Source: Escallonia rubra
Lineage: Eukaryota; Streptophyta; Magnoliopsida; Escalloniales; Escalloniaceae
Length of the DNA: 64,000 bases
Assembly (NCBI GenBank): GCA_033065855.1
Contig: JAVXUO010002361.1
Location: 232,400 to 296,399 of the forward strand
Reading direction: 5' to 3'
Below the pieces are notes generated by a model that was not told the DNA's origin, did not search any database, and worked only from the letters and a program-made list of their open reading frames with translations. The translations under genes were made by a program, and so were the position numbers. This document shows positions 1,032-64,000 of the stretch, piece by piece (position 1 is the first letter of the stretch; the number at the start of each line of letters is the position of its first letter).

Positions 1032-4000
1032 ATGTCCACGTCATCAGTTCGCCGGACCAAAGAACGGGGCGGCGCCGGAGGCAAGGTCGCTGCCGCCGCT
1101 GCCACCTCCAGACCCTCCAAAGTCCTGACCCCAATCTCCAAGAACCCTACCGGCGGCGGCGGCGAAACCCTCAAGAGATCCACCGGCAAAGAGAACCCTA
1201 GACCTACTTCCCGGATCCGGGCCGCTTCCTCTGGCCCAACCCAGAAGCCCGCCATCCGGCCAATGCCCCGCATCGACAAGTCCACGGCAGCGGAGAATCC
1301 CGAGTCACGTGTCCGGCGGTCCACGTCATCGGTTCCGAGAGGTAGGAGCTCTAGCCCATCTGAGTTTAACCGGGTCTTGTCAGATTTGCGTAAAGATAGG
1401 GTTTCTAGGGTTTCCCTTGACCGGTCAACGGCCAGGTCTCACTCAAAGAAGGCTGCTTTTAGTGATTCAAACGGAAATGGGACAAGGGTTTTTAAAATAA
1501 GCGACAATTGTAAGCAGTTGGAGTCGAAACCTGAAGAAAGTGTGATTATGAAACCTAGAATCAATAATTTGGATAAATGTAGTAAAGAGGTGAATTTGAG
1601 CTCGGATTCGATGAAATCGTTTTTAAAAAGTTCAATCATGGAGACTGGTGAAGATATTGGTACGAAAGTTTTTGAGAGTGTGCAAGCTGTTGATGAATTA
1701 ACGAATGGAAATGCCGATTTGGATTTGAAAGAATCTGGCGGAAAACCGTTGATTAGATCGAATGGTAGTTCAGAGGCTTCGAAGGAGAAAGGCGTAACGA
1801 TTAATAAGTACCAGAGCAAAATACATGAGAAGCTTGCGTTTTTGGAAGGGAAAGTGAAGCGGATTGCGTCGGACATTAAGAGGACAAAGGAGATGCTGGA
1901 TATGAATAATCCGGACGAGTCAAAAGTGATACTTTCTGATATTCAGGAAAAGATTTCGGGGATTGAAAAAGCTATGGTTCATGTTAGTGGCGATGATGCA
2001 ACGACTGATGCAGCCATAGGAATTGGAAATGATAGGCTGCGGATGAATGTTATGGGAGAGAGTCAGAACAAGGTAGCGGAGCCTGTGGAAATTCCGGTTG
2101 ACAAAACTGATACCCTGCTGCAGATCGGCATTTTCGATAAGAATGACAAGAAGGTAGCGGATTCTGTCAAAGGCACGACTAAGAGCTTGAATACTGATGA
2201 GTTAGAAGCGAGATTCTTTCCTCACCATAAGTTACTTAGAGATAGAACTTCACTGAAAGCATCATCAGGAAGCTCTTTGCCTTGCGAGCCTATAGTTGTA
2301 GTGTCTCCTAACAGGTCGAAGCTGGAGGAAAAGCCGTCCATTCCCATTGAAGAGAATTCAATTGCATTGGAGTTCCTGGCTTTGCTGAGTAATGAGCAAT
2401 CTAAAGTAAGCACTAGGGGTGATGATGTCGGCATGGAGGTCTGTGAAGTTCAGGAAATGGATAGTGGTGCAAATTCAGCAGTACAGGGCTGTTTAAACAT
2501 GTTTAGCAGTGAAGGGGGATTTGAGCTCACGACAAGTGAAACACTTGACGAGTTTGATGATCAAGAAAACGACCAGGCAATGGCAATTGAAGAAGAAGAA
2601 ACTGAAGATAGTTGCATGAACCAACTAAATGAAATCGGCCGTAAGGTCTCAACAGGAGGATGGTTTGTATCAGAGGGGGAGGCAGTTCTTCTTGCCCATG
2701 ATGATGGTTCATGTTTGTTCTACGATATTGCCAACTACGAGGTAGTGCAATCTAGCTACTTCATATGTTTGAACCTCTGTCCATTGCAATTCCGATATCC
2801 AATTTTCTTTGCACCAAACATGTACAAGTTTACCTCTAAGGCTAGAGCTTGATCATAAATATTGACCTTACTCATCATGTTTACCTTGTTTGACTTGGCA
2901 TAGGTTTAATTATTAGGTTTGATTCAATGGTGTCCTGATTTTCAAACCCCAGAATCTTCTACCTTTCAAGTTTGTAAAAGAGTATCATAAACTAGTAGGT
3001 TGCATATAGATGAGGGGACGACAACATACTAGTTGAGTGCCTTACCAGCATATTATCCAATTAACGTTATGCCGTTGTTTCAGGAGAAGGCTGAATACAA
3101 GCCTCCAGTTGGAGTCTCGAGTAACTTGTGGAGAGATTGTTGGATAATCCGTGCCCCTGGTGCAGATGGTTGCTCTGGAAGATATGTTGTGGCTGCATCT
3201 GCTGGTAATACCATGGACTCTGGTTTTTGCTCGTGGGATTTCTACACTAAGGACGTGCAAGCATTTCATATCGAGAACGGGAGCTGCAATAGTAGAACTG
3301 CCCTTGCTCCTTTGCCTAATAACACTCTCTACAAACGGAATTCTCTGTCTACTCTCATGGCTCCAGAAAACAGACAATGGTGGTATAAACCTTGTGGACC
3401 ACTTATTGCATCAGCAGCCAGTTCTGAGAGAGTAGCAAGAATCTATGACATACGAGACGGAGAGCAAATTATGAAATGGGAGTTGCAGAAGCCTGTGCTG
3501 GCAATGGATTACTCAAGCCCGTTGCAATGGAGAAATAGAGGAAAACTGGTTGTAGCAGAGGCTGAAACCATCTCTTTATGGGATGTGAGCTCTCTTAGTC
3601 CGCAAGCCTTGCTGTCTATTTCAACGTTAGGTCGAAAAATTACTGCAGTCCATGTGAATAACACTGATGCTGAATTGGGTGGAGGAGTTCGGCAGAGGTA
3701 ACTCTTCATGATGCCTCCTTTTGCTGCTCCACATTCTTAATTTTACACTTTCACTGGCTTGCATGCCCCTTTCCTTATTAGTTAATCTTGGCATATTTGT
3801 TAGGTATTAGGACATGAATATGCATTCTTCGTTAATCTATTTATCATCTATGCAGGGGTCATTGATTTTTCTTTTTCATGTACGGCATAACTGGTTTCAT
3901 TTTTTCTTTTTCTGCGGGTGGTAAATCCTTCAAGAACTTTACTACCCAAACAAGAAAATTGGCTTCCCTCATCCCCCAGGCATTGAACCAATTGAAGCAG

Positions 4001-9874: not shown

Positions 9875-10090
9875 TTTGCAAAAGGGATAATATTAGTTTG
9901 GTCCATTGTAGTTTACCCACTTTTTTAATTTAGTCCATGTAGTTCTAAATCCTTAAAATTGATCACTATACTTTGTTTCGTCATCAAATTAGCCCTTTCA
10001 TTAACATTTATGTTAAAATTTTGGGGGCATTTTTGTCATAACAGCATTCCCTCACCGCCTAAGTCTATTTCTCCCTACTTTCTGTCTCTC

Positions 10091-11446
10091 ATCTATTCGC
10101 AGAATGGCAAGTCCATATCCTTTTGGCAAGACTGGTGGGCTGGATTTGGGCCCATTAATCCCAACCCTGAGTATGAGACTAACTTGACGGTTGATAAGTT
10201 TATTTCACAAGATGGAAGTTGGAAGGTTCAGGACTTCTCTAGGTATATCCCTAACACTGAGATTCAGGCCATTACAACCATCCACCTACCTATACATCAA
10301 CTTGAAGTGGACTCTCCTTTTTGGGGTGTTGTGAGAACTGGCAAGTTCTCTACCTCTAGTGCCTATAGAATAGCTTCTTCTCTGGATGTGCACACTACCA
10401 CCTATCCTGATTTTGTTTGGATATGGAGGCTCAAGATCCCCCCAAAATTTAAATTCTTCCTTTGGACTATCAATCACGGAAGGCTTCTCACCAATGAGCT
10501 GAGAGCTATTAGGAACATCATCCCGAGTGCCATTTGTAGCAGATGCAAGAAAAAAGCTGAGACCATAGACCACACCCTCAGAAAATGCCCCAAAGCTAGA
10601 AGCCTATGGACTAAATTGTTTGACTCTAATCTATTTGAGCAGGACTTGAGATTCAACATAATAGATTGGATAAAAAGGAATTTAACAATAGGTGATAACC
10701 AGTTTTTCATGAATTTTAAATGGAAATCTGTTTTTTTAGCTTGTTTGTGGCAAATTTGGAAGGAACGCAACAAAGAAAGCATCGAAGGGATCACATTGGC
10801 TGTGTGGCAAACCTGGAAATGAGTTCTGGACCTGGCCAACGATCTGGATATTGCTAACAATAAGCCTTCTCTCCTTCCTAGTAAAACTTCTATGCTAATC
10901 AAATGGTTGACGCCACCTGCAGATACCCTCAAAATTAATACTGATGGCTATGCTAAAGGAAGTCAAAGATGAGGATATGGGGGTGTGATCCGTGATGATC
11001 AAGGACAATGGAAAGGAGCATTTTTTGGAAGCCTGCCTACTGATGATAGCCTGGAGGCCGAAATACATGGAGTTTTCAAAGCGTTACAAATTATCAAAGA
11101 CCAACAACTTTGTGAAGCTACGGTTGAAATGGACTCCCTCATGGCGCAACAGTTGATGACTACGTTTGAGATCGAATCCTTTCATCCTTTGTGTACTATT
11201 GTGAGAGATTGTCGCTTTTTGCTCATAGCGACTAAGTCTAGAATAATACATGTTTTTAGAGAGGGCAACCAATGCGCTGATATGCTAGCCAATCTAGGAA
11301 CTAAACATGATGGGGCTTTTATTTATCTCAACCAACCCCCTGTGGAACTTAGACCACTGCTTCTAGCAGATGTAATTGGGGTGGAATACCCTCGTAGCTA
11401 AGTTGTATTTCTGTTCCGTTCAATCAAAAAAAAAAAAATCTATTCG
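10091..11446 (+). mobile_element. 5'-truncated L1-type LINE with poly(A) and TSD
   Basis: ATCTATTCG occurs at 10091-10099 and again at 11438-11446, directly after an A run (11426-11438). Between them lies the 3' end of a LINE, about 1.34 kb. A poly(A) tail, a 9-bp target duplication and a severe 5' truncation are the hallmarks of target-primed reverse transcription. It inserted inside the MULE 9884-13777. Confidence 0.93.
10100..11401 (+). pseudogene. LINE ORF2 C-terminus: zf-RVT and RNase H
   Basis: One frame is maintained for 434 codons from the truncation point (QNGKSISFWQDWW) to the TAA at 11399. Only two nonsense codons interrupt it: TGA at 10820-10822 and TGA at 10970-10972. The first half matches the reverse-transcriptase zinc-binding region of plant LINEs (VWIWRLKIPPKFKFFLW, AICSRCKKKAETIDHTLRKC). 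The second half is a plant RNase H domain with acidic residues in INTDGYAKG, AEIHGVFKAL and VEMDSLMAQ. The endonuclease and polymerase core are missing, so it is dead on arrival. The near-open frame implies a recent insertion. Confidence 0.9.
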
Positions 11447-12291: not shown

Positions 12292-13786
12292 CCTACTTTG
12301 TGGCAAGGGGGGGCTGAAGCACCCCCTGACTTTTGGGGCAAATTTTTTGTTTTTTTTTTGGGAATCACACCACCTCGTTCCCCCACCCCGATACCCCGTT
12401 CTTCGAGACCACAACTCTCTCTCTCTCTCACCGGTGGACAGTGAACGTAACGACCGACGACTAAATCTGACATATTGCCAGCGACGCCACGCGACTGAAC
12501 GGTCTGAACCCATCTTGTAGATCTCCGACCGACAACCAGATCTTGAAGAAATGGCACTCTGCCGGTGACCAGATCTACGAGTCTTTGTCCGACGTCCGAC
12601 CACGTGACCAGTCACCAGATCTGCTTGACGGAGTGCCACTGCTTGACGCTGTTTGACCACGCGACCAGATCTGCTTAACGGAGTGCCTCACCCAGTCACG
12701 CTGCTGGCTGTTGGCGACCGCGAGCTGCTGCACGGACGATTGCTGGGATTTGTTGCTGGGAATTTGTCTGTTGTATGTTGCTTCGTCCCAATTCGTGGTG
12801 GAGCTGAATCCAGCCGTGGTGAATTTGTCTGTTGTCTGTCGAGTGTTGTCTACTTGAGACTTGAGTGCTTGACGGAGTGGCCCACTGCTTTGGTAAATTA
12901 TCGTTAATTTATTGTTATTGTTTATTATATATTTGTATGTCGATGCTTATGCTACAGACTTGGGTTATTTTACATGTATATAGATATCAATACAAATATA
13001 TTTGTACATTAAAAGTATCATAAACCTAGAGTTTAATTCTAAAATTTTCATTGGTATAGTTTAATTTTAGTGATTATATAAAGATTTAAAAAATTTTCTA
13101 TATAATATTATTTTACTCTAATTTTTTTGGGTGCATTCGATAGAATTTTTGCACCCCTGAAAAAAATTTCTGGTTCCGCCCCTGACTCTACCTGTTTAAC
13201 AAAATGCTTTAATGTCATCCCATGCACATGTGCTGCACAAGCAAAAACTGGGTCCTCTTGGGATTTTTGCTCCAGTCTTTGTCGTGCTTTGAAGCTCAAG
13301 ATTGGGGGTGTTTTGTTTGGGTCATGGAGCTGAGATTTGGATTTTTGTGTGGTGGGCTTTGTTTGTGCTTTACTGGGTCTGAAGAGTATACCGCTTTGAG
13401 CAACTGGGAGTTTGTTTTGAAGCTTTGAGTTGTTATACTTTTGTGATATGAAATTCTTGAAAAAAGATTGGTTGTTTGGATGATGGGTGTGGAGGCAGTG
13501 ATGGCGGGGTGGGTTTGTTTTGGGGAAGGGGTGTGCGGCAGCAGTGGTTACAAGCGGCGGTTGTAGCGGAGAAGGGGTGTCACGTGTATGGCATGTGCCA
13601 ATTTTACCTTAAAAAATATGAAATAACGAATTCACCTTTTAATTTAATAGGAAAAACTAACGGAAGGACCGGAATGGTGACGGGATGTAGTACAAGGATA
13701 AATTTCACGAAAATATGAGTTCAGGAATTGGTTTAAAAAAGGGGACAAAGTATAAGGGAACAAAATGAGAGTATCCCTTTGCAAAA

Positions 13787-51427: not shown

Positions 51428-52855
51428 GGGAGCTGATCCATTGCTCGCGCTAGCAAATGGAGTTAAGTTGCCAACGCGATCTGGCCGTCCACGCGCGATC
51501 TGTGGACGGTCCAGATCTTTTTTTTACGATTTTTTTAAGTACGTCCGGTACATAATGTAGCGGACGATATTTTTGACGAATATACCCCTCTAACTTGAGG
51601 GAGTCAAAGATGCTGCAAAACCCATCCGCTACATTATGTAGCGGATGATGGATGCTCAATTTTGCCCATCATCTCCTTCCTTTCTTTTGACTCTGTTCTG
51701 TGCTTTGATGTTTGTTATTTGTTCTGTTATGTGTTCCTCCAGTTTCATCCAAACCATAAAATGCTCTTCCAGTTTCATCCAATAACCACACAATCCCATG
51801 AACAAAAAAAAAATCAGTTGTTGATGAGCTAACAAAAAACATAAAATTGGGAAAAGATCAAACAAAACTGATAGTAGGATCGAGATCAAATCAAACCCAA
51901 ATTGGTGGTGGCGGCGTGAAAGGGAAGAACGAGGCCACTACAGAACCACCGCCACTCCATCACAACCAAGAAACCTACGATCGTTCATCCCAAGCAGTGT
52001 CTCCATCGCCCACAACCACCACCACTCTGCCACCGGCGCTGAACCCATCACCACCACCATCCGAACCCATCACCACCGCGACAGAACCACCGCCACTCCA
52101 CCACAACCATCACCACCACGACAGAACCACCGCCACTCCACCACAACTAAGAAACCTACAATTGTTCATCCCAAGCAGTGTCTCCATCGCCCACAACCAC
52201 CACCACTCTGCCACCGGCGCTGAACCCATCACCACCACCATCCGAACCTCCGTAAAATAAAAAGAAATAATAGATGTGAAGGTTTGGATCGAAATAAAAT
52301 CCTGAACGTAGGCCTCGCTGGCTACAGCGGCGGCGACATGAAAGGGAAACTCGCGATGCTTCGTCAGATCTGGGATATCCTTCTTCGCGATGCTTCAGTG
52401 ATGGGAACTCGCGATGCTTCGTCAGATCTGGGATCTCCTTCTTCGCAATGCTTCGGCAATGGGAACTCGCGATGCTTCGTCAGATCTGGGATCTCCTTCT
52501 TCGCGATGCTTCGGCGATGCTTGGTCTCATGGGCGGTGGTGGCGAGAGAGAGAGAGAGAGATAGAGAGAACCTCGGGGACAGAGGAAACACAGAAAAGAG
52601 AAAGACAACGGGAGATGATGGCCAAAATTGAGCATCCATCATCCGCTACATAATGTAGCGGATGGGTTTTGCAGCATCTTTGACTCCCTCAAGTTAGAGG
52701 GGTATTTTTGTCCAAAAATCGTCCGCTACATTATGTAGCGGACTGACTTAAAAAAATCGTAAAAAAAAAATTTGGACCGTCCACAGATCGCGCGTGGACG
52801 GCCAGATCGCGTTGGCAACTTAACTTCATTTGCTAGTGCGAGCAATGGATCTGCT

Positions 52856-52858
<3 letters not shown>
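51428..52858. mobile_element. Non-autonomous Mutator-like element with ~250-bp TIRs carrying palindromes
   Basis: GGGAGCTGATCCATTGCTCG at the left matches the complement of the right end with few changes over about 250 bp, so the ends form one long inverted repeat. It lies between two (TA)n tracts, which hide the target duplication. Each TIR contains two palindromes of the form TCCGCTACAT..ATGTAGCGGA (51543-51565, 51623-51647; 52640-52664, 52721-52743). The interior has two local duplications: a CCACCACC-rich block at 51943-52063/52126-52246, and three copies of a GATGCTTCGTCAGATCTGGG unit at 52355-52510. The ORF at 51847-52260 falls on that low-complexity repeat and is not credible. Confidence 0.88.

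Positions 52859-52897
<39 letters not shown>
52859..52897. repeat. (TA)n tract between two related MULEs
   Basis: About 39 bp of TA separate the right end of 51428-52858 from the left end of the large element. Confidence 0.95.
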
Positions 52898-52899
<2 letters not shown>

Positions 52900-53011
52900 G
52901 AGCTGATCCGTTGAGAGCGCGGGCAAAATAGGAGAAGTTGCAAACGCGATCTGACCGTCCATCCCGAATGATGGACGGTCCAGATCGCGCCTTTTGAAAA
53001 AGCTGTCAGCC

Positions 53012-53320
53012 GTCCGCCATACTGTATGGCGGACGGTTTTTTTTACCTTTTTGCCCTCCGCCAGTGTCCGCTACACTGTATGGCGGAGGGCATTAAAGTC
53101 CTGATGGGAGACAGCAAAAAGTCGTCCGCGATACTGTGTAGCGGACGTCCCCTAGGCTGACCTGTCAGGGCCTGTCCCGTCAGTTTTTTCTGCAATGATG
53201 GTTATCTTGTCCTTATCTGTCACATCAACAGTTTCTGCTATACAGTTTAGCGGACGTAATAGCCATCCGCGCTATTGTATCACGGACGTAATAGCCATCC
53301 GCGGTACTGTATTGCGGACG
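53012..53320. repeat. Palindromes in the left end of the large MULE
   Basis: About six copies of the 23-bp palindrome occur in 300 bp. The clearest are at 53012-53034, 53066-53088 and 53124-53146, with more degenerate ones around 53230-53320. Here the core is often CATACTGTATG-like rather than TATATAGTATA. Confidence 0.85.
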
Positions 53321-53774
53321 TTCAATATACTTGCAAACAGCAGTACTACAACACTCTTCTTCAGTCTTTCTACTCACAAAATCTACACTTTCTACGCAAT
53401 ATCCACTCTTTCCCAGGGGCGTTGGCAAGCATATCGGCGCAATTCCGGTTATCTTGAACACCTTTAATACCCTAAATCGATCACGTAAGTTCACAAAATC
53501 TACATTTTTTTTGTCTGTAATATTCAGTTCTGATGAATATTGCGTTTTATATATGTATGTTTTTGTTCTTGTGCAAGCGTTTGCAAAATCCGATTCCGTA
53601 TATGTATATATATTTATACATATGAGTACATATGCTAACATTGTACGTATCATTCATGTGCTTGCGTTATATGTATTATGCATGTGCTAGCGTCGTATTT
53701 TCGCATTTTATTATCAAAATCCAAAACGTAAAATCCAAACTGAGAAGGTTTTTCCATAATTTCAGTCGCAAAAA

Positions 53775-56700
53775 ATGGAATTTAACCCTGGACCTGAAGA
53801 CCCATCCGTGTTATACGACCAAGCCAACCATATCAGTACGCTCATATGAGATGGTGGTGTAAGATACATTACTTATTGACTTTCTATCGCTTACGAACGT
53901 TGTATATACCGTTTGTTATGCTCAAATTGTATTTATTAATTCGTAGGAAAGAGAACTTCTCAACACCGTAGAAGTATCTCGCGATATAGTATCGTGGAAA
54001 CTGAACACCGCCCAGAAGAGGATACTGCGTGGAATTGGGTTTGGGATTTTCACGCATGGGCAGATATTTCAACAGCTTGATCGGGCCTTAATAGGTGCCC
54101 TTGTTGAGAGGTGGAGAAGTGAAACGAATACGTTTCACTTCCCGCTCGGAGAGCTGACAATTACCCTAGAAGATGTACGATTCATCTTAGGGTTGCCGGT
54201 GACGGGGCTGCCGGTAATTGCTCCTCCGTCAGAAGCAACGAAGACGAGAACCGCTAGGGACTTCCTCACTTCGATACCCCAGGATGGATTTAGCAATGGT
54301 GGTATAAAGTTGAAGTGGTTGGTAGATACGTACGGGGTATTGCCGGAAAACTATACCGGCCATGAGCTTGTGCTTTACACAAAAGCCTTCCTCTGGTGGG
54401 TGATGGGGGCAATTTTATTCCCAACGACGTCGAAGAACACGGCCAGCGTGAAATATTTACCGTTGTTGGGTAACCTGGATGAGGTTGGAGATTATGCATG
54501 GGGTGCAGCGGTTCTTTCGTATCTGTACCGAGCATTGCACAAGGCAACGAGGCCCGACTCCAAAGCCATATGTGCATGTCTCTCACTATTGGAGGTATAT
54601 CATATAAATCCTGTCTTCGTTATTGTTTTTTTTTTGTTTTTGCTTTTGTTGAATGGACGATATATATATAATTTCTCCATGTTCTCAGGTGTGGTCTTAT
54701 GAACACCTTGCTCCCGGTTCACCGACGCGTAGGGATGGAACCGATAGAGTGTGGCCTCGGTTGCGTGCTTGGGAGTACAGCCGGAAGAATAACCACTACC
54801 GCAGGAGAGTCGATCCCCATCACAACATCACGTTCTATCGAGGGGAGTTTGACCGCCTATCTTCGGGCCAATTGCGTTGGGCACCGTACATACGTTTGGC
54901 GCGACGGGTAGAAGAGTCGTTCATCTTCACGCTCTCCGGGTTGCAGCGCATACCCCTCATCCACTTCGAGGTCGCAGAGTGGCAGCTGCCAGACCGAGCA
55001 ATGCGCCATTTTGAGTTGGAGCAGGGTTTGCCCGCCGGTGCCCCAGATATAAGGGTTAACAGGGACCCACCGGATGTCGGGCGGTTTGGCAAGGCCAATG
55101 CGCAAGAATTGTGCGCGGCCGAACTAGAGCTCTGGACTTTTTGGCAAGACACACTGGCGGCCATCGTCTCGGAGCCGGACCCCGTTATCAGCATCGCGGA
55201 GTACGATGAGTGGTACTCCCGCATCACGCGGAGGAGAGTAGCCCCAGTGAACTTTGAACGCGGGGCGAGGTATGCGCCTAGGGGTCAGATCAACGAGCGT
55301 ATGGCATACAATCTCATAAGTTGCCCAACTTGTCTTGAATATAAATGTCTGATTAAAGTTACTTATTTGTTATCTCTTTGGATGTAGGTTAATGCCTCGC
55401 TTGCATTCTTCCAGAAGTTGAGTGAGCGGAAGGATCTGATGAGCGCAATGGGCGAGGATCTTCGCCAATAGGCTGCTGCACTGGCTATAGGCTGCGGGAA
55501 TTTTGTGCGGCAAGCATCGGGACAGTCTTCGGTCGACAGCCCGGGAATGGGTTATACGGGCGCCAGCCCGTATAACGTTGATCCCTCCGGGCAAGCTTTA
55601 GGGGTGAGCCAGGGAGTTGGTGGTCCCTCTGTACCGGGGATGGGACATGCTCAAGCGTCGTGGGCCGATTACAGCGGCCCGACCTTCGATTTGTTCCCGA
55701 AACCCCAACCCCTCTCTCAGAGTCAAGTCACGCAAGAATGGCCTTACGGTTACAACGAGGCACTGCCCATTGTCTCGTGGGCGGGACCACTTGGCGGCCC
55801 TGAAGCAGAATATCAGTCGGCGAAAGAAATGGCCGGCGAGCAATATCAGCCGGCCGGGGCCCCCGAAGGCGATTATCAGCCGGCCGGGGCCCCCCAAGGG
55901 GATTATCAGCTAGCCGATCTGTTGTTGGAGGCCAATTTCTTCCGTTGCTCTTGCCCCCCGGCGGAGGGCAAGAGCAACTGGTATACCCCCGAGGGCAATA
56001 TCTGAAAGGGCATCCAGCCAGGCCCCTGAAGCCGCATAAACGCCACCTAATCCATCACCGTTATTTTAGCGGCCCCCCCCAGACGGAGCGTCGTATGCCG
56101 TGGCTAACCCACAGGGCTTGGATTACAGTGTCTCGTGGAGAGAACTGTCCACGCTGGCGTCGGGGATGTGGTTAGACAACTTTGTCATCTCGCACTACGT
56201 GCAAATTCTGTGGCAAAGGAGTCGGGAGCAGCCTAACTTCGGTCCGCGCATTTTTATCCTCGATGCTTTCTTTCACAATATGCTAGTACAAGAGTTTAAC
56301 GAGTGGGACAAGGCGAGGAAGCAGGCGAGAAAGGTGAAGGCCGAGGTCAAGTGGAGACCGTCCGCTAACCTACTCGCATATATTGGTTGGCCGAGTCCAG
56401 AGCGCGCAAGTGTGGCAGATGTGTTTCTACTCCCAGCTATAGTGAATGCCCACTGGTTCTTGATTTGCTATGAACCGGTAACGAATACCGTATCAGTCCT
56501 CGACAGTCTCTACGATGATACGGGCGCGATTGGTGTGATTGAAATGTACGTTGGCTTAGGGATGTTGAATCCAATGGTAAGAGCCTGTTTACTTCTTATT
56601 GTAACTTGCATAATGTAGAACTGATTAATCGTATTATGTTTGCTATGTTTAATGTTTAATGTTTATCCTGTTACTCGCAGAATCTATTTGCTGCCATGGT

Positions 56701-56971
56701 CAATAGAGAGCGTTCTCGAGAGTCCCGAGGGAGGGCAGCGAGCGGTAGGGAGGTTGTTCTCCGATTGAAGAGGACTAGGCCCAAGCAACTTAATTCCTCA
56801 GACTGCGGCGTCTACCTCTGCATGTACATGGATTACATCTGTCGGTCGGAGAGCCTCAAGAAGACCGTCTGGACCCAAGACTGCATAGACTGCTTTAGGT
56901 ATAGGATGGCTTGGCAAATTATCAATGGCCGGCCTAGACCTATTAGATATATTGTAAATCCGTGTAATTGA
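53775..56971 (+). pseudogene. PMD (plant mobile domain)-Ulp1 cysteine protease fusion, damaged
   Basis: Inferred exons are 53775-53856, 53947-54594, 54689-55303, 55388-56576 and 56681-56971. The N-terminus (MEFNPGPEDPSVLYDQANHI) and NTFHFPLGELTITLEDVRFI plus GLPVTGLPV are the plant mobile domain. 54689-55303 (DRVWPRLRAWEYSRKNNHYR) completes it. A Pro/Gly/Tyr-rich linker follows, with a repeated YQPAGAPEGD motif. The C-terminus is a C48/Ulp1-type protease with His in NAHWFLICYE, Asp in VLDSLYDD and Cys in NSSDCGVYLCMYM. Damage: TGA at 53847 (probably TGG originally), a GC rather than GT donor at 55304, TAG at 55469, and a frame change between about 55980 and 56090. PMD and Ulp1-like domains are known transposon cargo. 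The catalytic residues remain, so loss is probably recent, or stop read-through or splicing occurs. Confidence 0.82.
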
Positions 56972-57204
56972 CAATGTTTGCGTATAATAACATTATATTC
57001 ACTTCTTTAATTGTCCTTAAACTTCTTGAATCTTATCGTTTGAATGCGATTGACGATTTCATCTGTGTTGACTGAAATGTGATCGTTGTTGAATGCGATT
57101 GATTTGATTCACTGATATCGTTGTGTTGTTCAGCTGAGTGTTTTATTTATTCTGTGTGATTTGCTTTCACCAGGGAAAACAAAGTGTTATAACCAAGTGA
57201 GACT

Positions 57205-57985
57205 GTTTCTGTTGGACTGTCCGCTAAACATAGATAGGGCCGAAAAAAAAACTAAGTGTTGGGGAGGCTACCTTCTGCTTGGCTGTCCGCGATATAGTAT
57301 AGCGGACGTAGGGCCGAAAAAAAACTAATTGTTGGGTCCCTTCTGCTTTACTGTCCGCTATATAGTATAGCGGACATAGATAAAAAACTAAGTGTTGGGG
57401 AGGCTACCTTCTGTTTGGTTGTCCGCGATATAGTATAGCGGACGTGAATAGGGCCGAAAAAAAAATTAAGTGTTGGGGAGGCTACCTTCTGCTTGGCTGT
57501 CCGCGATATAGTATAGCGGACGTGAATAGGGCCGAAAAAAAATTAAGTGTTGGGGAGGCTACCTTCTGCTTGGCTATCCGCGATATAGTATAGCGGACGT
57601 AGATAGGGCCGAAAAAAAACTAAGTGTTGGGTCCCTTCTGTTTTACTGTCCGCTATATAGTATAGCGGACATAGATAATAGGGCCTAAAAAAAACTAAGT
57701 GTTGGGGAGGCTACCTTCTGCTTGGCTGTCTGCGATATAGTATAGCGGACGTAGCTAGGGCAAAAAAAAACTAAGTGTTGGGTCCCTTCTGCTTTACTGT
57801 CCGCTATATAGTATAGCGGACATAGATAATAGGGCCTAAAAAAAACTAAGTGTTGGGGAGGCTACCTTCTGCTTGACTGTCCGCGATATAGTATAGCGGA
57901 CGTGAATAGGGCCGAAAAAAAAAACTAAGTGTTGGGGAGGCTACCTTCTGCTTGGCTGTCCGCGATATAGTACAGCGGACATAGA
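57205..57985 (+). repeat. Palindrome array 1: ten or more units in two alternating types
   Basis: Units of about 80 bp (AACTAAGTGTTGGGGAGGCT, ACCTTCTGCTTGGCT, palindrome with GCGATATAGTATAGC core, GTGAATAGGGCCG) alternate irregularly with units of about 70 bp (TGTTGGGTCCCTTCTGCTTT, palindrome with GCTATATAGTATAGC core, ATAGATA). About ten near-perfect palindromes start near 57285, 57351, 57421, 57501, 57578, 57647, 57728, 57798, 57880 and 57958. It sits between the 3' ends of the protease gene and of the minus-strand small ORF. Confidence 0.92.
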
Positions 57986-57989
57986 TATG

Positions 57990-58430
57990 TAATTTTTTTG
58001 GTCACTTTTTTTTTGCTCATTGCACCTTAGGCACGCTATATAGCCCATTTCTATGAATTTCGGCGAAAAACGAGACAATTTATTTTTTTGGTTTTCCTAT
58101 GAAGGGCCTATTCGCGCACACTTTAGCGCCAAATTCATAGCTTGCGAAAAATGTTGTAATTTTTTATGTCACTTTTTTTTTCTCATTGCACCTTAGGCAT
58201 GCTAGTTACCCCATTATAGTATGACGGATGTAGTTAGAAACATATATTCCCAACATTTTACATGCTTCAAAAGACGGGATACGCCAATTAGAATGACATG
58301 TGGATGAGTGCCGGTTGGAATGAAATCCTAGCATGCAGTAGGAAGAGATATATATATCACTCTTCATTTGACATATACTCATCAGATAAGTACTGATCAT
58401 TCGTTAAAATATTGTTTCTCTCGTTTGATT
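57990..58430. repeat. Spacer with a duplicated GCTAGTTA/GCTATATAG phrase
   Basis: Two copies of TTTGCTCATTGCACCTTAGG-like text (about 58012 and 58175) lie in 190 bp. A diverged palindrome half (ATTATAGTATGACGGATG) is at 58213-58230. No gene. Confidence 0.45.
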
Positions 58431-58434
58431 TGAG

Positions 58435-58791
58435 CTACCTCCCACTAACCTCGGCCATTTCTTCCGCAAGTTGAAGCATATAAAATCGTTTTCTACGCAG
58501 CAACATCCGGTTATTCTCCATACGAATTTGGCGCACAACTTTCTTACACTGCTTAACATTACGCCGCGACATAGTAAGTGAACGACGTTGCGGCACAGGT
58601 GCTCTCAGCGTGGTGAGATCTTGGTGTAGCGCTTCTGATTCCTTAACTCGATATGCCCATTCTCTCCGTAAACCGCAATAATACTCTCTGGGATCCGTGT
58701 ACTTCACTTCTTTGTAGTCGTCGTTCCTTTCACACAACAACCACACAGTCTCACGTCCCCGCAGACTAGAACTCCCAGGAACTCCTGCCAT
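58435..58791 (-). CDS. Small charged protein of unknown family, paralogue of 59179-59610
   Basis: This is a 118-residue intact frame from ATG 58791. I do not recognise a named domain. It is clearly homologous to the plus-strand neighbour: LRREWAYRVKESEAL against LRAEWSYRMNEREVL, then APVPQRRSLTMSR against IPIPRQKAINMPR, and RQIRMENNRMLLRRKR against HRIREENNRMRVRQSR. Both end in a basic, probably helical segment. The N-terminus has Trp and Cys (TVWLLCERNDDY). The shared 387-bp divergent promoter region contains repeated GGTGACAAGACAA words. Conservation of two diverged copies, both open, argues that the frame is or was selected. The role is unknown; position inside the MULE suggests a transposon accessory protein. 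Confidence 0.72.
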   Translation of the reverse strand: MAGVPGSSSLRGRETVWLLCERNDDYKEVKYTDPREYYCGLRREWAYRVKESEALHQDLTTLRAPVPQRRSLTMSRRNVKQCKKVVRQIRMENNRMLLRRKRFYMLQLAEEMAEVSGR

Positions 58792-59178
58792 TTAACTTTG
58801 TTTTGGTTCTAAAGCGATGAGCATGGCTAACATATATAAATAAGCCCACACACACATACACAATATATTGGTGTGATAGCTACACAATAGTCTGTCCATC
58901 TCTGGTGACAAGACAAGTCTCTGGACATTGAAGATGACAATAGTTGGAGACAATAGCATGCCCGTGTCATAAAGTTGACAAGTCTTTGGTGACAAGACAA
59001 TTCTCTTTGGTGACAAGACAAGTCTCTAGTCTATTGCCAACGTTGGGTCACATCTCATAAAGTTGAACCTGTAGCTCTTTCATAAATTGGTCCCGTTTCA
59101 AAGTATATATAAGTACATGCATTGCTCATTGCAAAGGGCATAGAGTGATATACTCCCAATTTCATAACAACTCTGGAA
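58792..59178. promoter_or_regulatory. Divergent promoter region with GGTGACAAGACAA repeats
   Basis: This lies between the two small ORFs. Three copies of (T)GGTGACAAGACAA followed by TCTCT occur at about 58909, 58987 and 59010. TATATAAG at 59105-59112 is 67-74 bp before the plus-strand ATG. ATATATAAATAAGC at 58830-58844 supplies a minus-strand TATA-like word. Confidence 0.55.
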
Positions 59179-59610
59179 ATGTCATATACTCCACGAGATA
59201 TTTTTGAAGCAATGGGTCGTTACTGGGCGGGCGAAGATGAATTTTACTATTCTTTGCGTCCAAGTTTGCGTTACTCATCAAGCTATGTGAATACATTACG
59301 TGCAGAATGGTCTTATCGGATGAATGAACGTGAGGTCTTAGTAGCTGATTCACGGAGCATGAATATACCCATACCTCGACAAAAGGCAATCAACATGCCT
59401 CGAATTACGCACATGGAGCTTGAAAGGGCACTGCATCGAATACGTGAGGAAAATAATAGAATGAGAGTTCGTCAAAGTAGGCATAACTTACGTCGTATGG
59501 CACGTGATGCACATGAAGATGGCAACAACAATGAAGCACAAGTATACTGGAACATGAGCTTCGAAGAAGGAAATGTTTCCGATGCTCCAGTTTCAGATGA
59601 AGATGACTGA
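59179..59610 (+). CDS. Small charged protein of unknown family, paralogue of 58435-58791
   Basis: This is a 143-residue intact frame. Aromatic-rich N-terminus (MSYTPRDIFEAMGRYWAGED, EFYYSLRPSLRYSS), then the shared core (LRAEWSYRMNEREVLVADSR, IPIPRQKAINMPR, LERALHRIREENNRMRVRQS), a basic helix and a strongly acidic tail (EEGNVSDAPVSDEDD). The basic helix plus acidic tail recalls nuclear or DNA-associated small proteins, but that is inference. The perfect 102-bp inverted repeat begins 13 bp after the stop codon, so the transcript's 3' end probably falls within it. Confidence 0.75.
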   Translation: MSYTPRDIFEAMGRYWAGEDEFYYSLRPSLRYSSSYVNTLRAEWSYRMNEREVLVADSRSMNIPIPRQKAINMPRITHMELERALHRIREENNRMRVRQSRHNLRRMARDAHEDGNNNEAQVYWNMSFEEGNVSDAPVSDEDD

Positions 59611-59622
59611 AGATCGAGTTCT

Positions 59623-59985
59623 ATAGCGGACATAAGGCCTCCGCTTAGGCCGGGGTTCGGGAAGGTCGGAACTAAGTGTCTGGTTCGTGCCAACCATTTT
59701 CTGGTCCAAGTTGCAGACAACCATTTTTCTCTCCTAGGTCCGCTATATAGTATAGCGGACAGCCCCGCAGAGGGAAACTCTCCAATTCTCTTGTTTTTTT
59801 TCCTCCTATCTATGTCCGCTATATAGTATAGCGGACTACCCCGCAGAATACATGACCAAGCTTACATCATAGTGGTGCAGCAGATGGTTGTCTGCAACTT
59901 GGACCAGAAAATGGTTGGCACGAACCAGACACTTAGTTCCGACCTTCCCGAACCCCGGCCTAAGCGGAGGCCTTATGTCCGCTAT
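59623..59985. repeat. Perfect 102-bp inverted repeat with palindromes in its loop
   Basis: The left arm 59623-59724 (ATAGCGGACATAAGGCCTCC...) and right arm 59884-59985 are exact complements by eye over 102 bp, with a 159-bp spacer. Each arm's outer end is half of the element's palindrome (ATAGCGGAC / GTCCGCTAT). The spacer carries two full palindromes at 59738-59760 and 59814-59836. A transcript through it would form a long hairpin. Confidence 0.93.
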
Positions 59986-59989
59986 GTAG

Positions 59990-60335
59990 TAGAGCTAGAC
60001 GTTGTAGCGTATTGCAGTTTTAATAAATTGGCGCCCAAAGGCTTGTTTTAGTCGCATTGTAGCATAATGCTGTTTTAATAAATTGGCACCCCGAAGACTT
60101 GTTTTGGCGTCAGAATCAACAATCTCAATATCGATAAACAATAAAGAACGTACGATTCACAATCAACGATCTCAATATATCGACGGAATCTCAAACGACA
60201 CAATTAACGTACGATTCACAATCAACGATCTCAATATATCGACCGTATCTCAAACGACACAATTAAGCACAATTAAGCGAGGAAAAATTTCGAAACACAA
60301 TCAACAAGAACATAAATTATTTTATTAATAATAAA
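59990..60335. repeat. Two short tandem duplications downstream of the B3 gene
   Basis: A diverged pair of about 55 bp contains TTTTAATAAATTGGC (about 60000-60105). Tandem units of about 62 bp contain GATTCACAATCAACGATCTC and TCAAACGACACAATTAA (60149-60270). They lie 3' of the minus-strand B3 gene. Confidence 0.75.
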
Positions 60336-60816
60336 TTAGGGTTCACATTGGGGGAAAGAAATTTTTTCACAAGTGCTCCGATCAAAGATTACAACTTGAA
60401 AATCCCACCACCCAAGGTGTTCAAACACTACAAAGTCCCCGAGTTCGAGGCCATGCTGGCGCACGAAGACGTTCCAACCCTCTGCGAATTGCTTTTTTTG
60501 GGGTCGGCCGGGCTTCAGCTTGATTTCAACCTGCCATGCCCCCTTGCGGCTATATAATCTTGCACTGTCATGAATTGTTGTAAATTGATTGGTCAAGGCT
60601 TCCGGTATGTCCTAACAAACACAATACAAAAAATAAGTTAGTTTATAGGTTAGTTTTTAACCAAAATATCAAACCTTTAACACACGAAATTACAGAGAAA
60701 GAGGGATCGCCTACAAGTTCATTCTCAAACCTCGGCATCATGACTTTGAAAAAGTGTTTGCCTGCCAGGTGCAAGTTGCCAATAAAATCGTTGGTGGTCT
60801 CCGATCCAGAAGCCAT
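60336..60816 (-). CDS. Single-B3-domain DNA-binding protein (REM-like), two exons
   Basis: The exons on the minus strand are 60816-60694 and 60611-60336, with a GTAATT...TTAG intron of 82 bp in phase 0. The result is 132 residues with no defects. The whole protein is one B3 fold: HFFKVMMPRFENELVGDPSF and DIPEALTNQFTTIHDS (first DNA-contact strand/loop region), YSRKGAWQVEIKLK, FAEGWNVFVRQHGLELGDFV and VFEHLGWWDFQVVIFDRST. The pattern W.V.....F..GW..F...L..GD..VF......V.IFD is diagnostic of the plant-specific B3 superfamily, closest in style to REM proteins. It has no activation or dimerisation domain. Array 2 of the palindrome lies just upstream (60995-61355), which puts the motif in its promoter. 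A B3 gene in a Mutator-like element is unusual; it could be captured host DNA or a true transposon gene. Confidence 0.87.
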
Positions 60817-60994
60817 CGAGGTCGGCGTTGAGGGGAGGACGGTTTAACGCCAGAGTTGTGGGCCACCGGAGATGTGGGTGCCGGAGATGGAGTAGCGGCC
60901 TGGGCTAGATGTTCGAGACAGAGAGAGTGCCTTCAGATAGGACTGATAACAGCTGATTGCCCGATATGATTAATATATATATTAGGATAGAGTT

Positions 60995-61355
60995 ATCCGC
61001 CACATTGTATAGCGGACATAAAAGAACACCAAAAGTTTTTCTTCTTTTACGTCCGCTATATTGTATAGTGGACATAAAAGAAGACCAAAAGTTTTACTGC
61101 GATGAAGTCCGCTATATTGTATAGCGGACATAAAAAGCAGACCAAAACTTTGACTGCTCATGACGTCCGCTATATTGTATAGCGGACATAAAAGCAGACC
61201 AAAACTTTTTCTGCTCATGAAGCCCGCTATATTGTATAGCGGACATAAAAGCAGACCAAAACTTTTACTGCTCATGACGTCCGCTATATTGTATAGCGGA
61301 CGTAAAATTACAAAAATTTTGCCTGCGATGACGTCCGCTACATTGTATAGCGGAC
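60995..61355. repeat. Palindrome array 2: seven units of about 57 bp
   Basis: Seven palindromes of form GTCCGCTATA-TTG-TATAGCGGAC (first at 60995-61017, last at 61333-61355) are separated by ATAAAAGCAGACCAAAACTT, TTTACTGCTCATGAC-like linkers. The array occupies the space between the B3 gene's start and the transposase gene's 3' end. Confidence 0.93.
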
Positions 61356-61499
61356 GGGGCTTACAAAAAAAAATTGCAATTAAGACTTTAGATTTGATTC
61401 GATGGCCTCTCATAGGTCCATTTTTTAAAAATTTCAGTATTCGGTGGAAAAATTATCCCTCCGAAAATTATTACAAATGTCATAACGTTGTACAAAAAA

Positions 61500-63723
61500 T
61501 TAAAGGTCCACTGCAGCTTGTTCGTCCTCATCTTCGGCGTCACCTTCTTCCCCGTCTTGCAAACCCCCTGAACTTATCCCCAGTGCCTTGTAATGGTTCC
61601 GCTTGTCGTGGTCGGTCATTTTGTTGCACAATGCACACCTTCGCAGCTTTTTAGGTTGAGTTGCCGTTTCAATAGAGCTTTTCATCCGCGTAGATCTCTT
61701 GCGGCCTTTCGTTTGCGATATAATTGGATCCAACATCTGGATATCATTGTCGTCTTCCTCCCCTGGCTCGTCATCTTCTGATCCCGTCGTAGGCTCGGTG
61801 TCAATCGCATTGGTGACTGAAGCTGCTTCCAACTGGTCGACGATGGGCTCTTGCTGCTGAGCTACCTCGAGGAGATGTTTATAACCGACCATTGAAGCAG
61901 CAGCCTTTACGGACAAACGGGTGAAACTCGTCACCAGATGATTATACCGCAACGTCTCCGATTCTTCAAAGTCAGTATACGGGTGCTCTGGAAAGGCAAT
62001 GGTACCGTGGCAAGACGTATTTATCGGGGATTGTCCTGATATTCTTCTGGGTGAAAAAGCACAGAATGTGTCTACACAGGATGCCATGGAACTCAAACTT
62101 CTTGCAAACACATGTCACCGAGTCCGTCAATGTGTCGTGGCTCACCGTATACATTCTGCGCAGCTTCTCAGGAACGAGGTCATTCACGAGCGAATAAACC
62201 TTGTACTGACGCGTAGACTTCTTCGCCACCTTGTTTATAAAGTACCGACCCGATTTCTGCAGCTCTACTTGGTATAGCAAGAAGATCTCCTTCGTATAGA
62301 CTTTGGCACCGTTCAGCTCCAGCGGGGTCTCAAGCAACCTTCTCCTCTGTTTGTACGTGGTTGCAAAGTCTGCAGCCCTTTCTTTCACGAACAACGACGC
62401 AACCGCTTTCTGTGCGGATGTGACGAAACTCTTCAAATTGGTAGCTGTACCCACGTAACTATCGAACGTGGCATTCATAGATTCACTCCTGCCCGTCGTT
62501 TTCATGCCCGCAGAAAAATGCCTCCTCGTGTAAACGCCAATCCATTGCTCTTTGAGCTCGTACAAGTGCTGGAGCCACCCGTTGTCTTGTAATGAGTAGT
62601 CCTGAACAAGCTTTTCCCACCTCTCTTCAAATTCCTCAATCGTTAACGACTTGCTAACGCACGTGTCAAAATCCTCTTTAAAGTCTGGAAACTTTGCGTA
62701 CACGTGATGCAAACGTTCGGGGTATTTGTTGCTTATGTGCCAAGTGCACAAGTTGTGTCGAGTATCTGGGAAGACGGTGGCAATAGCCTTCTTCATTGCC
62801 AAATCTTGATCGGTGATGATAACGTTGGGTGCTTTGAAGTTCATGGCTTCCAGCCACACACTAAACAACCATTCAAAAGAACTCTCGCTCTCGTCCCTTA
62901 ACAAGGCGAACCCGAACAGGATGGAGTGATAATGATGATTGACCCCCGTGAAAGGGGCAAACGGCATCGAGTACTTGTTGGTACGGTATGTGGTGTCGAA
63001 AGTCACGACATCCCCAAAATGCTTATAAGCAAGCCTGGAACGACCGTCGACCCAAAAAATTGTGCTAACTCGATGCTCGTCGTCAAGTTTATAATCGAAG
63101 GTAAACTGCGGGTCCTCCATCTGCATCCGCTTCAATAGGCTCATTGTGGCTTGAGCATCATTGAGGTCATACGCGGCTCGTCTATGGGTTCGGACCGCGT
63201 TGCGAACGTCTGTCGTGTTAAAGTTTAAATTTTGAATTCCCCCGGCCTGTTCAGCAAGAACATTAATCATGTCGGTAGGTCCTAGCCGCGCATCGCTCAT
63301 TGTGTGAATAAGGCTCCTCGCGACCTTTCCCATCTTCTTGTGTTGATGCATCTGACTCACCTTAGAAGGGGTTACTAACGGGTGATTGTGTGCCAGTTCC
63401 AGGCTGGTAATAAGCCAATGATCTTGCTTGGCTTTATAGCTTACGAACATCTTGACCTGGCAATTCGTTCGCGCAAAGAAGTCCCGTCTTCTGCGCGAAT
63501 ATCCTATTTCGTCATCACTGTCCTCGTTGCCTACGCGTGTCTCATTTTGCACTGGGTTTCTGCCCCTATGGCACTCGTATAAGCGAGAGCATATCTTTCT
63601 CGTTATGTTGCTCGTTCTTGAAGTCTTTATTCTAATGCCAAATCCAACCCTCAATGAATACGCTCGGAAACATTCTCCAGCTTCCTCCAATGTTTGAAAG
63701 GTTCGTCCACAGATCACTAGCAT
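61500..63723 (-). pseudogene. FAR1/WRKY-GCM1 + MULE transposase + SWIM finger, one frameshift
   Basis: From ATG 63723, 583 residues are open to 61972. The frame then shifts by one base, near 61980-62060, into a second open stretch ending at 61500. In order: FAR1-type zinc finger (about residues 15-115; CSRLYECHRG, RTNCQVKMFV, LELAHNHPLV), and the MULE DDE core with Asp243 (VVTFDTTYRTNKYSMPF), Asp305 (NVIITDQDLAM), the CxxH motif (NLCTWHI) and probable Glu414 (GRSESMNATF). Next is the SWIM finger (SVTCVCKKFEFHGILCRHIL). After the shift come DFEESETLRYNHLVTSFTRL, an acidic stretch and a CxxC zinc-knuckle-like motif (RRCALCNKMTDHDKRNHY). An upstream ATG at 63760 (MSDFVSSSNTLVDASDLW) is in another frame and may be the original start. 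It would catalyse cut-and-paste transposition at the element's TIRs. Confidence 0.85.
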
Positions 63724-63760
63724 CTACGAGGGTGTTGGAGCTCGACACGAAATCAGACAT

Positions 63761-64000
63761 TGTGAAACAGCTCCCTATATGTAGAAATATAGACTACGCT
63801 GAACAATCAAATGACATTTTCAACTGAAAATATTACCTTAAAATTATCTTGACGAATAGACAAATTTAAGATGACAAATATACCATATACATAATCTCAA
63901 AAGTCTCCCATTTTGCTAATTATAGATTTATTGAACATAACAAATTAAAATTACTAAGAGCGTTAGACAAATTCATCATGCCAAAATACAACAAACGTAA
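63761..64000. other. Upstream region of the transposase gene
   Basis: AT-rich, with no terminal repeat and no palindrome. The element's other end is therefore beyond the window. Confidence 0.4.

What the first reader, a model, noticed from the sequence alone, without database searches (positions are those of the whole stretch)
52898..64000. A Mutator-like element that carries protease, B3, transposase and two unknown small proteins together
Seen: one TIR at 52898, followed by PMD-Ulp1 (+), a divergent pair of small paralogues, a single-B3 protein (-) and a FAR1/MULE/SWIM transposase (-), all embedded in spacers with the same palindrome. Known: Ulp1-like proteases and PMD domains do travel with plant MULEs. 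Arabidopsis VANDAL MULEs encode proteins that bind repeated motifs in the element and relieve silencing. Inference: the B3 protein and/or the small pair may be the DNA-recognition or anti-silencing part of an analogous but unrelated system. I know of no described element with this combination.
Basis: partly seen in the sequence, partly recalled or inferred. Interest (0 to 1): 0.92.

Follow-up and report, generated by a model that had tools for sequence, protein, structure and literature searches.

The report
Jumping gene with a recognition-site kit
A plant jumping gene, with hundreds of copies, carries its own cutting enzyme, a protease, a DNA-binding protein and an old pair of small unknown proteins, and has repeated one mirror-image DNA site through its spacers, which makes it a promising place to study how such elements recognise themselves and may escape silencing.

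Summary
The window copy starts at 52898 and runs off the contig end. Five subtype-A copies fetched with both ends hold all five genes between matching TIRs; C85, also with both ends, lacks the small pair and PMD. It is a FAR1/SWIM-type MULE inserting in (TA)n with 9-bp duplications. Transposase and B3 tags occur 983 and 559 times. The set is modular: B3 was found in all three subtypes sampled; the small pair is missing in subtype B and inverted in C. The small pair is an old family: its two branches split with full support, each with relatives elsewhere. The palindrome is a 23-bp dyad, GTCCGC-N11-GCGGAC. All 25 full dyads of the window element lie outside genes; 295 dyads show no compensatory arm change, as for a protein site. 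Best reading: an element-encoded protein, transposase or B3, reads the dyad at ends and promoters. Anti-silencing with PMD-Ulp1, like VANDAL VANC, is plausible, unproven (about 0.3). My searches found no paper with this combination. New variant of a known kind.

The parts
52861..52897 (.). (TA)n target tract; 9-bp target duplication inferred from other copies
   Evidence: flank comparison of 9 elements
52898..53161 (+). left terminal inverted repeat (right TIR is beyond the contig end)
   Evidence: w 52859-53161 matches the right end of C26 at 97.7% over 303 bp, 39 bp of it the TA tract
53012..53319 (.). six dyads: three inside the TIR, three just inside it, 5' of PMD-Ulp1
53775..56971 (+). 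PMD-Ulp1 gene, exons 53775-53858, 53947-54594, 54689-55315, 55388-56576, 56681-56971 (spliced model, no RNA evidence); 946 aa in copy C77; damaged in the window copy
57285..57980 (.). array 1: ten dyads in 68-80-bp units between PMD-Ulp1 and small1
58357..58791 (-). small1 (S1), 144 aa in open copies, stop at codon 119 here
58792..59178 (.). stretch between the divergent S1 and S2 genes (likely shared promoter), no dyad, three 24-nt direct repeats at 58899-59027
59179..59610 (+). small2 (S2), 143 aa, open here
59623..59985 (.). perfect 102-nt inverted repeat (59623-59724 / 59884-59985) enclosing two dyads at 59738 and 59814
60336..60816 (-). single-B3 gene, exons 60694-60816 and 60336-60611, 132 aa, open in this copy
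60995..61355 (.). array 3: seven dyads in 54-58-bp units, 5' of B3
61500..63760 (-). transposase (FAR1, MULE, SWIM), 765 aa in open copies; frame broken near 62010 here
51428..52858 (.). neighbouring 1.4-kb relative with its own TIRs and dyads (no transposase match), in the same (TA)n tract

Best explanation
A high-copy autonomous-type MULE of the FAR1/SWIM (Jittery-like) sort, 11.4-12.4 kb in subtype A, inserts into (TA)n with a 9-bp duplication. Shown: the TIR-bounded unit, the gene set, a 23-bp dyad confined to spacers with arms kept by sequence, three subtypes, and mosaic divergence of modules. Inferred: the dyad is the binding site of an element-encoded dimeric protein (transposase FAR1 domain about 0.45, B3 about 0.35, other about 0.2). 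Binding at TIRs would help choose the ends; binding 5' of PMD-Ulp1, transposase and B3, and along the arrays, would mark the family's own copies for regulation. PMD-Ulp1 would act on host chromatin or SUMO-dependent silencing there (weaker inference). The small pair is an older cassette with a dyad-free stretch between its genes, added to or lost from this core.
For: Unit: five subtype-A copies with both ends match all five genes (not all frames open). TSD: 7 of 9 elements have identical 9-bp flanks, none identical 8- or 10-bp flanks. Dyads: 25 of 25 full dyads of the window element outside genes; 1414 consensus, 61 one-sided and 0 two-sided arm pairs in 295 dyads. In 52 sites with mutually dissimilar flanks, positions that the search pattern did not fix still carry information (A10 1.53, T14 1.41, T16 1.41, C23 1.14 bits; flanks about 0.1). 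Linkage: of 87 listed exact transposase tags, 47 have an exact B3 tag and 52 an exact small2 tag on the expected side (46 same orientation, 6 opposite). Dyads persist where the small pair is missing (5 of 8 fetched, and C85). pN/pS over 10 copies: transposase 0.34 (0.24-0.47), small1 0.47 (0.22-0.99), small2 0.43 (0.21-0.99). Modules differ in age within one pair: C26 vs C85 dS 0.00 in B3, 0.14 in transposase, 0.77 in PMD-Ulp1.
Against: No binding, expression or methylation data. B3 selection is not shown: 0.62 (0.28-1.50) over 10 copies; of the seven pairs of C26 with an interval in the B3 list, only C304 lies below 1 (0.27, 0.12-0.61); C173 0.70 (0.42-1.14), C9 0.62, C91b 0.82, C79 0.85, C89 1.14 and C95 0.44 all have intervals reaching over 1. 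PMD-Ulp1 is weakly constrained (0.77, 0.63-0.95). 28 of 87 exact transposase tags have neither exact B3 nor small2 tag; the one of them examined (C79) has a B3 remnant with a stop and other DNA in place of the pair. Three weaker palindrome matches do fall in genes of the window element. The arm information is inflated by the search pattern. Tandem expansion can spread a motif without selection. Which protein reads the dyad is a guess.
Confidence: 0.6

Rival explanations
1. The dyads serve transposition only: they are transposase-binding subterminal sites that spread inward by tandem duplication. B3 and PMD-Ulp1 do unrelated jobs and there is no anti-silencing.
For: In most copies three dyads lie in the TIRs at about 115, 170 and 228 bp from the end (C77 shows two on the left); the short neighbour also has dyads near both ends; the transposase is the most constrained protein while dyad arms hardly change between subtypes.
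Against: Most dyads lie in internal arrays, including 3' of genes; 19 of 25 in the window copy are over 4 kb from the left end.
Confidence: 0.38
2. VANC-like anti-silencing: an element-encoded protein (PMD-Ulp1, or B3 as guide with PMD-Ulp1 as effector) binds the arrays and keeps the family's noncoding DNA unmethylated.
For: Short motif in tandem repeats in noncoding regions, as for VANC targets (PMC5735166, passages). Host PMD proteins act in TE silencing and MULE-borne PMD was suggested for anti-silencing (PMC5418596, passages). CpG o/e is 1.02 over the element against 0.68 (sd 0.15) in 26 2-kb windows of 1-51 kb. CpG:other transition ratio is 1.34 pooled over 10 family pairs against 1.94 pooled over 10 control repeat pairs, and 0.8 inside dyads against 1.4 in other spacer.
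Against: Two of the 26 background windows reach 1.03-1.05. The control is small and more diverged (0.129 against 0.058), and one control pair (C116b/C89) gives 1.08. Spacers as a whole are not better protected than genes: raw CpG transitions 0.039 against 0.017, ratios 1.4 and 1.6. DUF1985, found in VANC, is only E 0.029 on one exon.
Confidence: 0.3
3. B3 and the small pair are captured host passengers (Pack-MULE style) without function in the element.
For: Small pair absent or inverted in other subtypes; the B3 selection interval includes 1 in the 10-copy set and in most pairs; plants have many host B3 genes (recalled).
Against: The 150 best-scoring B3 exon-2 hits (of 1394 candidates) are all at least 98% identical and 149 have no stop, though being the best they favour this. 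small1 dN/dS C26-C173 is 0.32 (0.11-0.74). The S1/S2 split is old and relatives are unnamed proteins, one carrot cluster holding 16 sequences.
Confidence: 0.2
4. The palindromes act as RNA or DNA hairpins (terminators, siRNA precursors, cruciforms).
For: 10-bp arms with a 3-nt centre; two arrays lie 3' of genes.
Against: No compensatory arm change in 295 sites; inner positions 7 and 9 are unpaired in 125 and 103 of 295: sequence, not pairing, is kept.
Confidence: 0.07

Closest known systems
MuTAnT / AutoMuTAnT of Medicago (PMC4486113; parts 1 and 2 of 4 of the text read)
   Same: MULE inserting into (TA)n, 9-nt TSD, long fold-back TIRs, Jittery-like transposase, many short relatives.
   Different: 4.9-kb putative autonomous element with a single ORF, the transposase.
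VANDAL elements with VANC of Arabidopsis (PMC5735166, PMC10398659; passages)
   Same: Extra element genes beside the transposase; short motif in tandem repeats within noncoding DNA.
   Different: VANDALs have degenerate TIRs and VANC carries DUF1985; here TIRs are long, the domain is PMD, and the motif is a 23-bp dyad, not YAGTATTAY.
Kaonashi/KIU Ulp1-carrying MULEs (PMC13317346; passages)
   Same: Ulp1/C48 protease gene carried by a MULE.
   Different: Described as non-TIR MULEs; no B3 or S1/S2-like pair in the passages seen.
PMD-carrying MULEs and host MAIN/MAIL1 (PMC5418596, PMC7156037; passages)
   Same: Plant mobile domain in a MULE.
   Different: The MULE cases in the passages are PMD-C fused to transposase in grasses and Amborella; here PMD is fused to C48 in a separate gene.
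Spm TnpA and MuDR MURA (named in PMC10398659, passage; TnpA site details recalled)
   Same: Element proteins linked to loss of DNA methylation of their own family.
   Different: Different proteins and sites; Spm is a CACTA element (recalled).

Membership tests
Mutator-like (MULE) superfamily | MULE transposase domain | tested here: met
   PF10551 1.5e-32
Mutator-like (MULE) superfamily | about 9-bp target duplication (9 nt called typical in PMC4486113) | tested here: met
   7 of 9 elements have equal 9-bp and unequal 8/10-bp flanks; C47 differs, and C85_B has only 6 bp before the next element
Mutator-like (MULE) superfamily | long terminal inverted repeats | tested here: met
   TIR alignments of 202-287 bp at 87-98% in 9 of 9 elements
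Jittery/FAR1-type MULE | FAR1, MULE and SWIM domains in the transposase | tested here: met
   relatives with the same domains; no tree with Jittery was made
MuTAnT family | insertion into (TA)n | tested here: met
   9 of 9 elements in TA tracts, that of C47 interrupted
MuTAnT family | transposase-only autonomous element | tested here: not met
   five genes
MuTAnT family | sequence relation of TIRs and transposase to MuTAnT | not tested
   no MuTAnT sequence was compared
VANDAL | degenerate or absent TIRs | tested here: not met
VANDAL | VANC with DUF1985 | tested here: not met
   DUF1985 E 0.029 on one exon, below cutoff; not listed for the full protein
VANDAL | element protein binds the repeated motif and lowers methylation | not testable with these tools
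   needs binding and methylation data
Ulp1-carrying MULE | C48 domain with His, Asp and Cys motifs | tested here: met
   C48 1.8e-14; AHWFLI, VLDSL and SSDCGVF seen in the C77 model; catalytic roles recalled, activity not tested
Pack-MULE | captured host fragments without transposase | tested here: not met
   transposase present and constrained; a host origin of B3 was not tested

The most novel reading that the evidence does not exclude
A self-marking MULE: one 23-bp dyad, copied into TIRs, promoters and arrays, is a family-wide address read by an element-encoded B3 or FAR1 protein, which brings in PMD-Ulp1, a mimic of the host MAIN/MAIL1 silencing proteins armed with a SUMO protease, to keep only its own copies open. 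An ancient S1/S2 heterodimer cassette, with relatives in other asterids, is swapped in and out of this kit. The kit has supported about a thousand transposase copies.
Probability: 0.25. Interest if true: 0.87.

Novelty: new variant of a known kind. Interest (0 to 1): 0.63.

Why it matters
If an element protein reads the dyad, this is a further MULE system, beside VANDAL, in which motif and reader can be tested directly, with a plainer target: a dyad of fixed spacing instead of a short degenerate motif. It puts a PMD-Ulp1 protein beside an element-wide address, so the printed guess that MULE-borne PMD counters silencing becomes testable. It also gives an unnamed small protein family (S1/S2) a home in a mobile element and shows that MULE gene sets can be swapped, lost and inverted as cassettes.

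Tried and rejected
Small2 alone found no relative; the S1+S2 profile then found 35. AlphaFold models: small2 helical, best model pLDDT 74.7 but the other four 52-54; small1 57.6. Foldseek of the small2 model against PDB gave no match at E<=0.001. The S1+S2 profile in viral contigs: none. Palindromes as hairpins: disfavoured by lack of compensation. Small pair as required reader of the dyad: disfavoured because dyads persist without it. CpG argument: suggestive only. Dropped before counts: C9, as rearranged, from the 10-copy pN/pS; the B3 exon cut was wrong and C9 was still in, so its B3 and small1 figures are not used. In one search, 40 palindrome matches without A10/T14 were dropped; three such matches lie in PMD-Ulp1 (two) and transposase (one) of the window element. 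P0151 (81 aa) was left out of the tree. One search failed in part and was rerun; its small1 rows for C91b and C53 are probably matches to small2 remnants and are not used. PMD-tag and TIR-end counts were never obtained.
Full report
What is there. The window copy begins at 52898 with GGGAGCTGATCC in a (TA)n tract and carries PMD-Ulp1 (+), two divergent small genes, a single-B3 gene (-) and a FAR1/MULE/SWIM transposase (-). The contig ends at base 64000, so its right TIR cannot be seen. It is a damaged copy: the transposase frame is broken, small1 is cut short by a stop, PMD-Ulp1 has stops and an altered splice donor; B3 and small2 are open.

The unit. I fetched ten other loci from the listed palindrome hits, choosing places with several dyads, most with the layout of the window copy, so this is not a random sample. 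Five have both ends (C26, C77, C47, C103, C116; 11,440-12,351 bp) and all five match all five genes; their TIRs align over 253-287 bp at 87-98%. Their frames are not all open: for instance C26 has stops in PMD-Ulp1, C47 in small2 and C116 in transposase. A sixth gene-bearing element with both ends, C85, lacks the small pair and PMD. Over nine elements (the five, C85 and three short ones) the flanks are TA tracts; seven have identical 9-bp flanks and none identical 8- or 10-bp flanks, so the duplication is 9 bp; C47 differs and C85 is cut short by the next element.

Numbers. Tags of 30 bases with up to 3 mismatches occur 983 times for transposase, 559 for B3 and 578 for small2 in 566 Mb. For B3 exon 2, the best 150 of 1394 candidates were scored, all at least 98% identical, 149 without a stop; for small1, the best 150 of 1349. 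These are tag or exon copies, not counts of intact elements.

Is the set fixed? The searches list only the first 100 exact places each. Restricted to contigs up to C739 these are 87 transposase, 99 B3 and 87 small2 tags. Of the 87 transposase tags, 46 have small2 in the same orientation (40 of these with B3 too), 6 in the opposite orientation, 7 have B3 only and 28 neither; a mutated tag counts as missing. Of the 99 B3 tags, 55 have small2 nearby. Of the 44 without, I fetched 8: five show no small pair (C17, C155, C259, C519, C696), C642 has none beside array-1 DNA, C53 keeps part of small2, C487 has the pair. Two more were already held: C85 has no pair, C89 has it. C85 is a 7.06-kb element with TIRs, C48 region, B3 and open transposase. 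C173 and C9 carry the small block inverted. C304 has open B3, small1 and small2; C91b is internally deleted; C79 has a B3 remnant with a stop. So B3, C48 and transposase were found in all three subtypes sampled, and the small pair is an optional cassette. Whether subtype B keeps PMD outside C85 was not seen.

Mosaic history. Between C26 and C85 dS is 0.00 in B3, 0.14 in transposase and 0.77 in the PMD-Ulp1 part; between C26 and C173 it is 0.43, 0.11 and 0.31. One shared history hardly gives such numbers; exchange of modules is the simplest reading. Dyad arrays lie between modules, but breakpoints were not shown to fall in them.

Selection. Pooled pN/pS over 10 copies (C9 dropped as rearranged): transposase 0.34 (0.24-0.47), small1 0.47 (0.22-0.99), small2 0.43 (0.21-0.99), B3 0.62 (0.28-1.50), PMD-Ulp1 0.77 (0.63-0.95). 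Across subtypes: small1 C26-C173 0.32 (0.11-0.74); small2 C26-C173 0.66 (0.36-1.30); B3 C26-C304 0.27 (0.12-0.61), but C26-C173 0.70 (0.42-1.14) and the other B3 pairs with an interval also reach over 1. Selection on B3 is therefore not shown. 20 of 24 sequences with B3 have no stop in the part held; indels were not counted there.

The small pair. Small2 alone finds nothing, but an S1+S2 profile finds 35 proteins, five with plant names (two Camellia, Rhododendron, Vaccinium, carrot), all without Pfam family. The tree of 40 rows splits S1 and S2 with 100/100 support; S1 holds Camellia, Rhododendron and Daucus, S2 holds Vaccinium and unnamed rows. So the pair is an old duplicate. Whether the relatives lie in transposons could not be seen. 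The nearest transposases are unnamed (46-47%), the nearest named ones from carrot and celery (about 40-45%); an asterid host is my inference.

The dyad. GTCCGC-N-AYA-N3-TRT-N-GCGGAC, 23 bp. The window element has 25 that also keep A10 and T14, none in a gene; three weaker matches without these fall in PMD-Ulp1 and transposase. Dyads lie in the TIRs, 5' of PMD-Ulp1 and B3, in other copies 5' of transposase, and 3' of genes, but not between small1 and small2. In 52 sites with mutually dissimilar flanks the arms keep 1.5-2 bits at ten positions, which the search pattern favoured; positions outside the pattern (10, 14, 16, 23) keep 1.1-1.5 bits and flanks about 0.1; a few of the 52 are chance matches in coding DNA. 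Of 1475 arm pairs in 295 dyads, 1414 are consensus, 61 changed on one side and none on both. Sequence rather than pairing is kept. Dyads persist without the small pair.

Silencing. VANC proteins of Arabidopsis VANDALs bind short motifs in tandem repeats of noncoding DNA (PMC5735166, PMC10398659, passages). Some VANC genes carry Ulp1 (PMC13317346, passages). Host PMD proteins act in TE silencing, and the authors speculated that MULE-captured PMD counters it (PMC5418596, passages). Here the element has CpG o/e 1.02 against 0.68 (sd 0.15) around it, two of 26 windows reaching 1.03-1.05. CpG:other transition ratios are 1.34 for family pairs against 1.94 for a small, more diverged control set with one pair at 1.08; spacers as a whole are not better protected than genes. 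This is compatible with low methylation but does not show it.

Against the literature. Full-text searches combining MULE terms with B3, Ulp1 or PMD gave no description of the combination: none with all four terms, one unrelated paper, four, and 27 of which 10 were listed. Papers outside the library could exist. MuTAnT is the closest in target choice and TIRs (PMC4486113, parts 1-2 of 4), VANDAL in the layout of motif and extra genes. By membership it is a FAR1/SWIM-type MULE; it is not a VANDAL (TIR and DUF1985 tests fail), though it may work like one.

Noticed in passing
window 51428-52858: A 1.4-kb relative with 92% identical TIRs, its own dyad variant GTCCGCTACATTATGTAGCGGAC and an interior with CCACCA-rich and 58-bp repeats sits in the same (TA)n tract, 39 bp from the larger element.
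   Followed up: partly
L031 and L033 (C85), joined positions 13490-13497: Two elements lie head to head with only TATATA between them, as if (TA)n were hit twice.
   Followed up: no
L042 (C173) and L027 (C9): The small1/small2 block is inverted relative to transposase; 6 of 52 exact transposase-small2 pairs show this and none of the 6 has the exact B3 tag.
   Followed up: partly
window 59623-59985: A perfect 102-nt inverted repeat encloses two dyads between small2 and B3; it lies close to one limit of the block that is inverted in C9 and C173.
   Followed up: no
window 52898-64000: No CpG depletion in a high-copy element: o/e 1.02 against 0.68 (sd 0.15) for 2-kb windows of 1-51 kb.
   Followed up: partly
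window 58899-59027: Three copies of a 24-nt direct repeat (TCTTTGGTGACAAGACAAGTCTCT type) between small1 and small2.
   Followed up: no
window 3033-3701 and 9959-10822: An At4g14310-like beta-propeller exon (Pfam 1.1e-63) and a zf-RVT reverse-transcriptase-type ORF; a search with the latter scored 40 of 115 candidates, 39 of them relatives at 69-90% identity besides the window itself.
   Followed up: no
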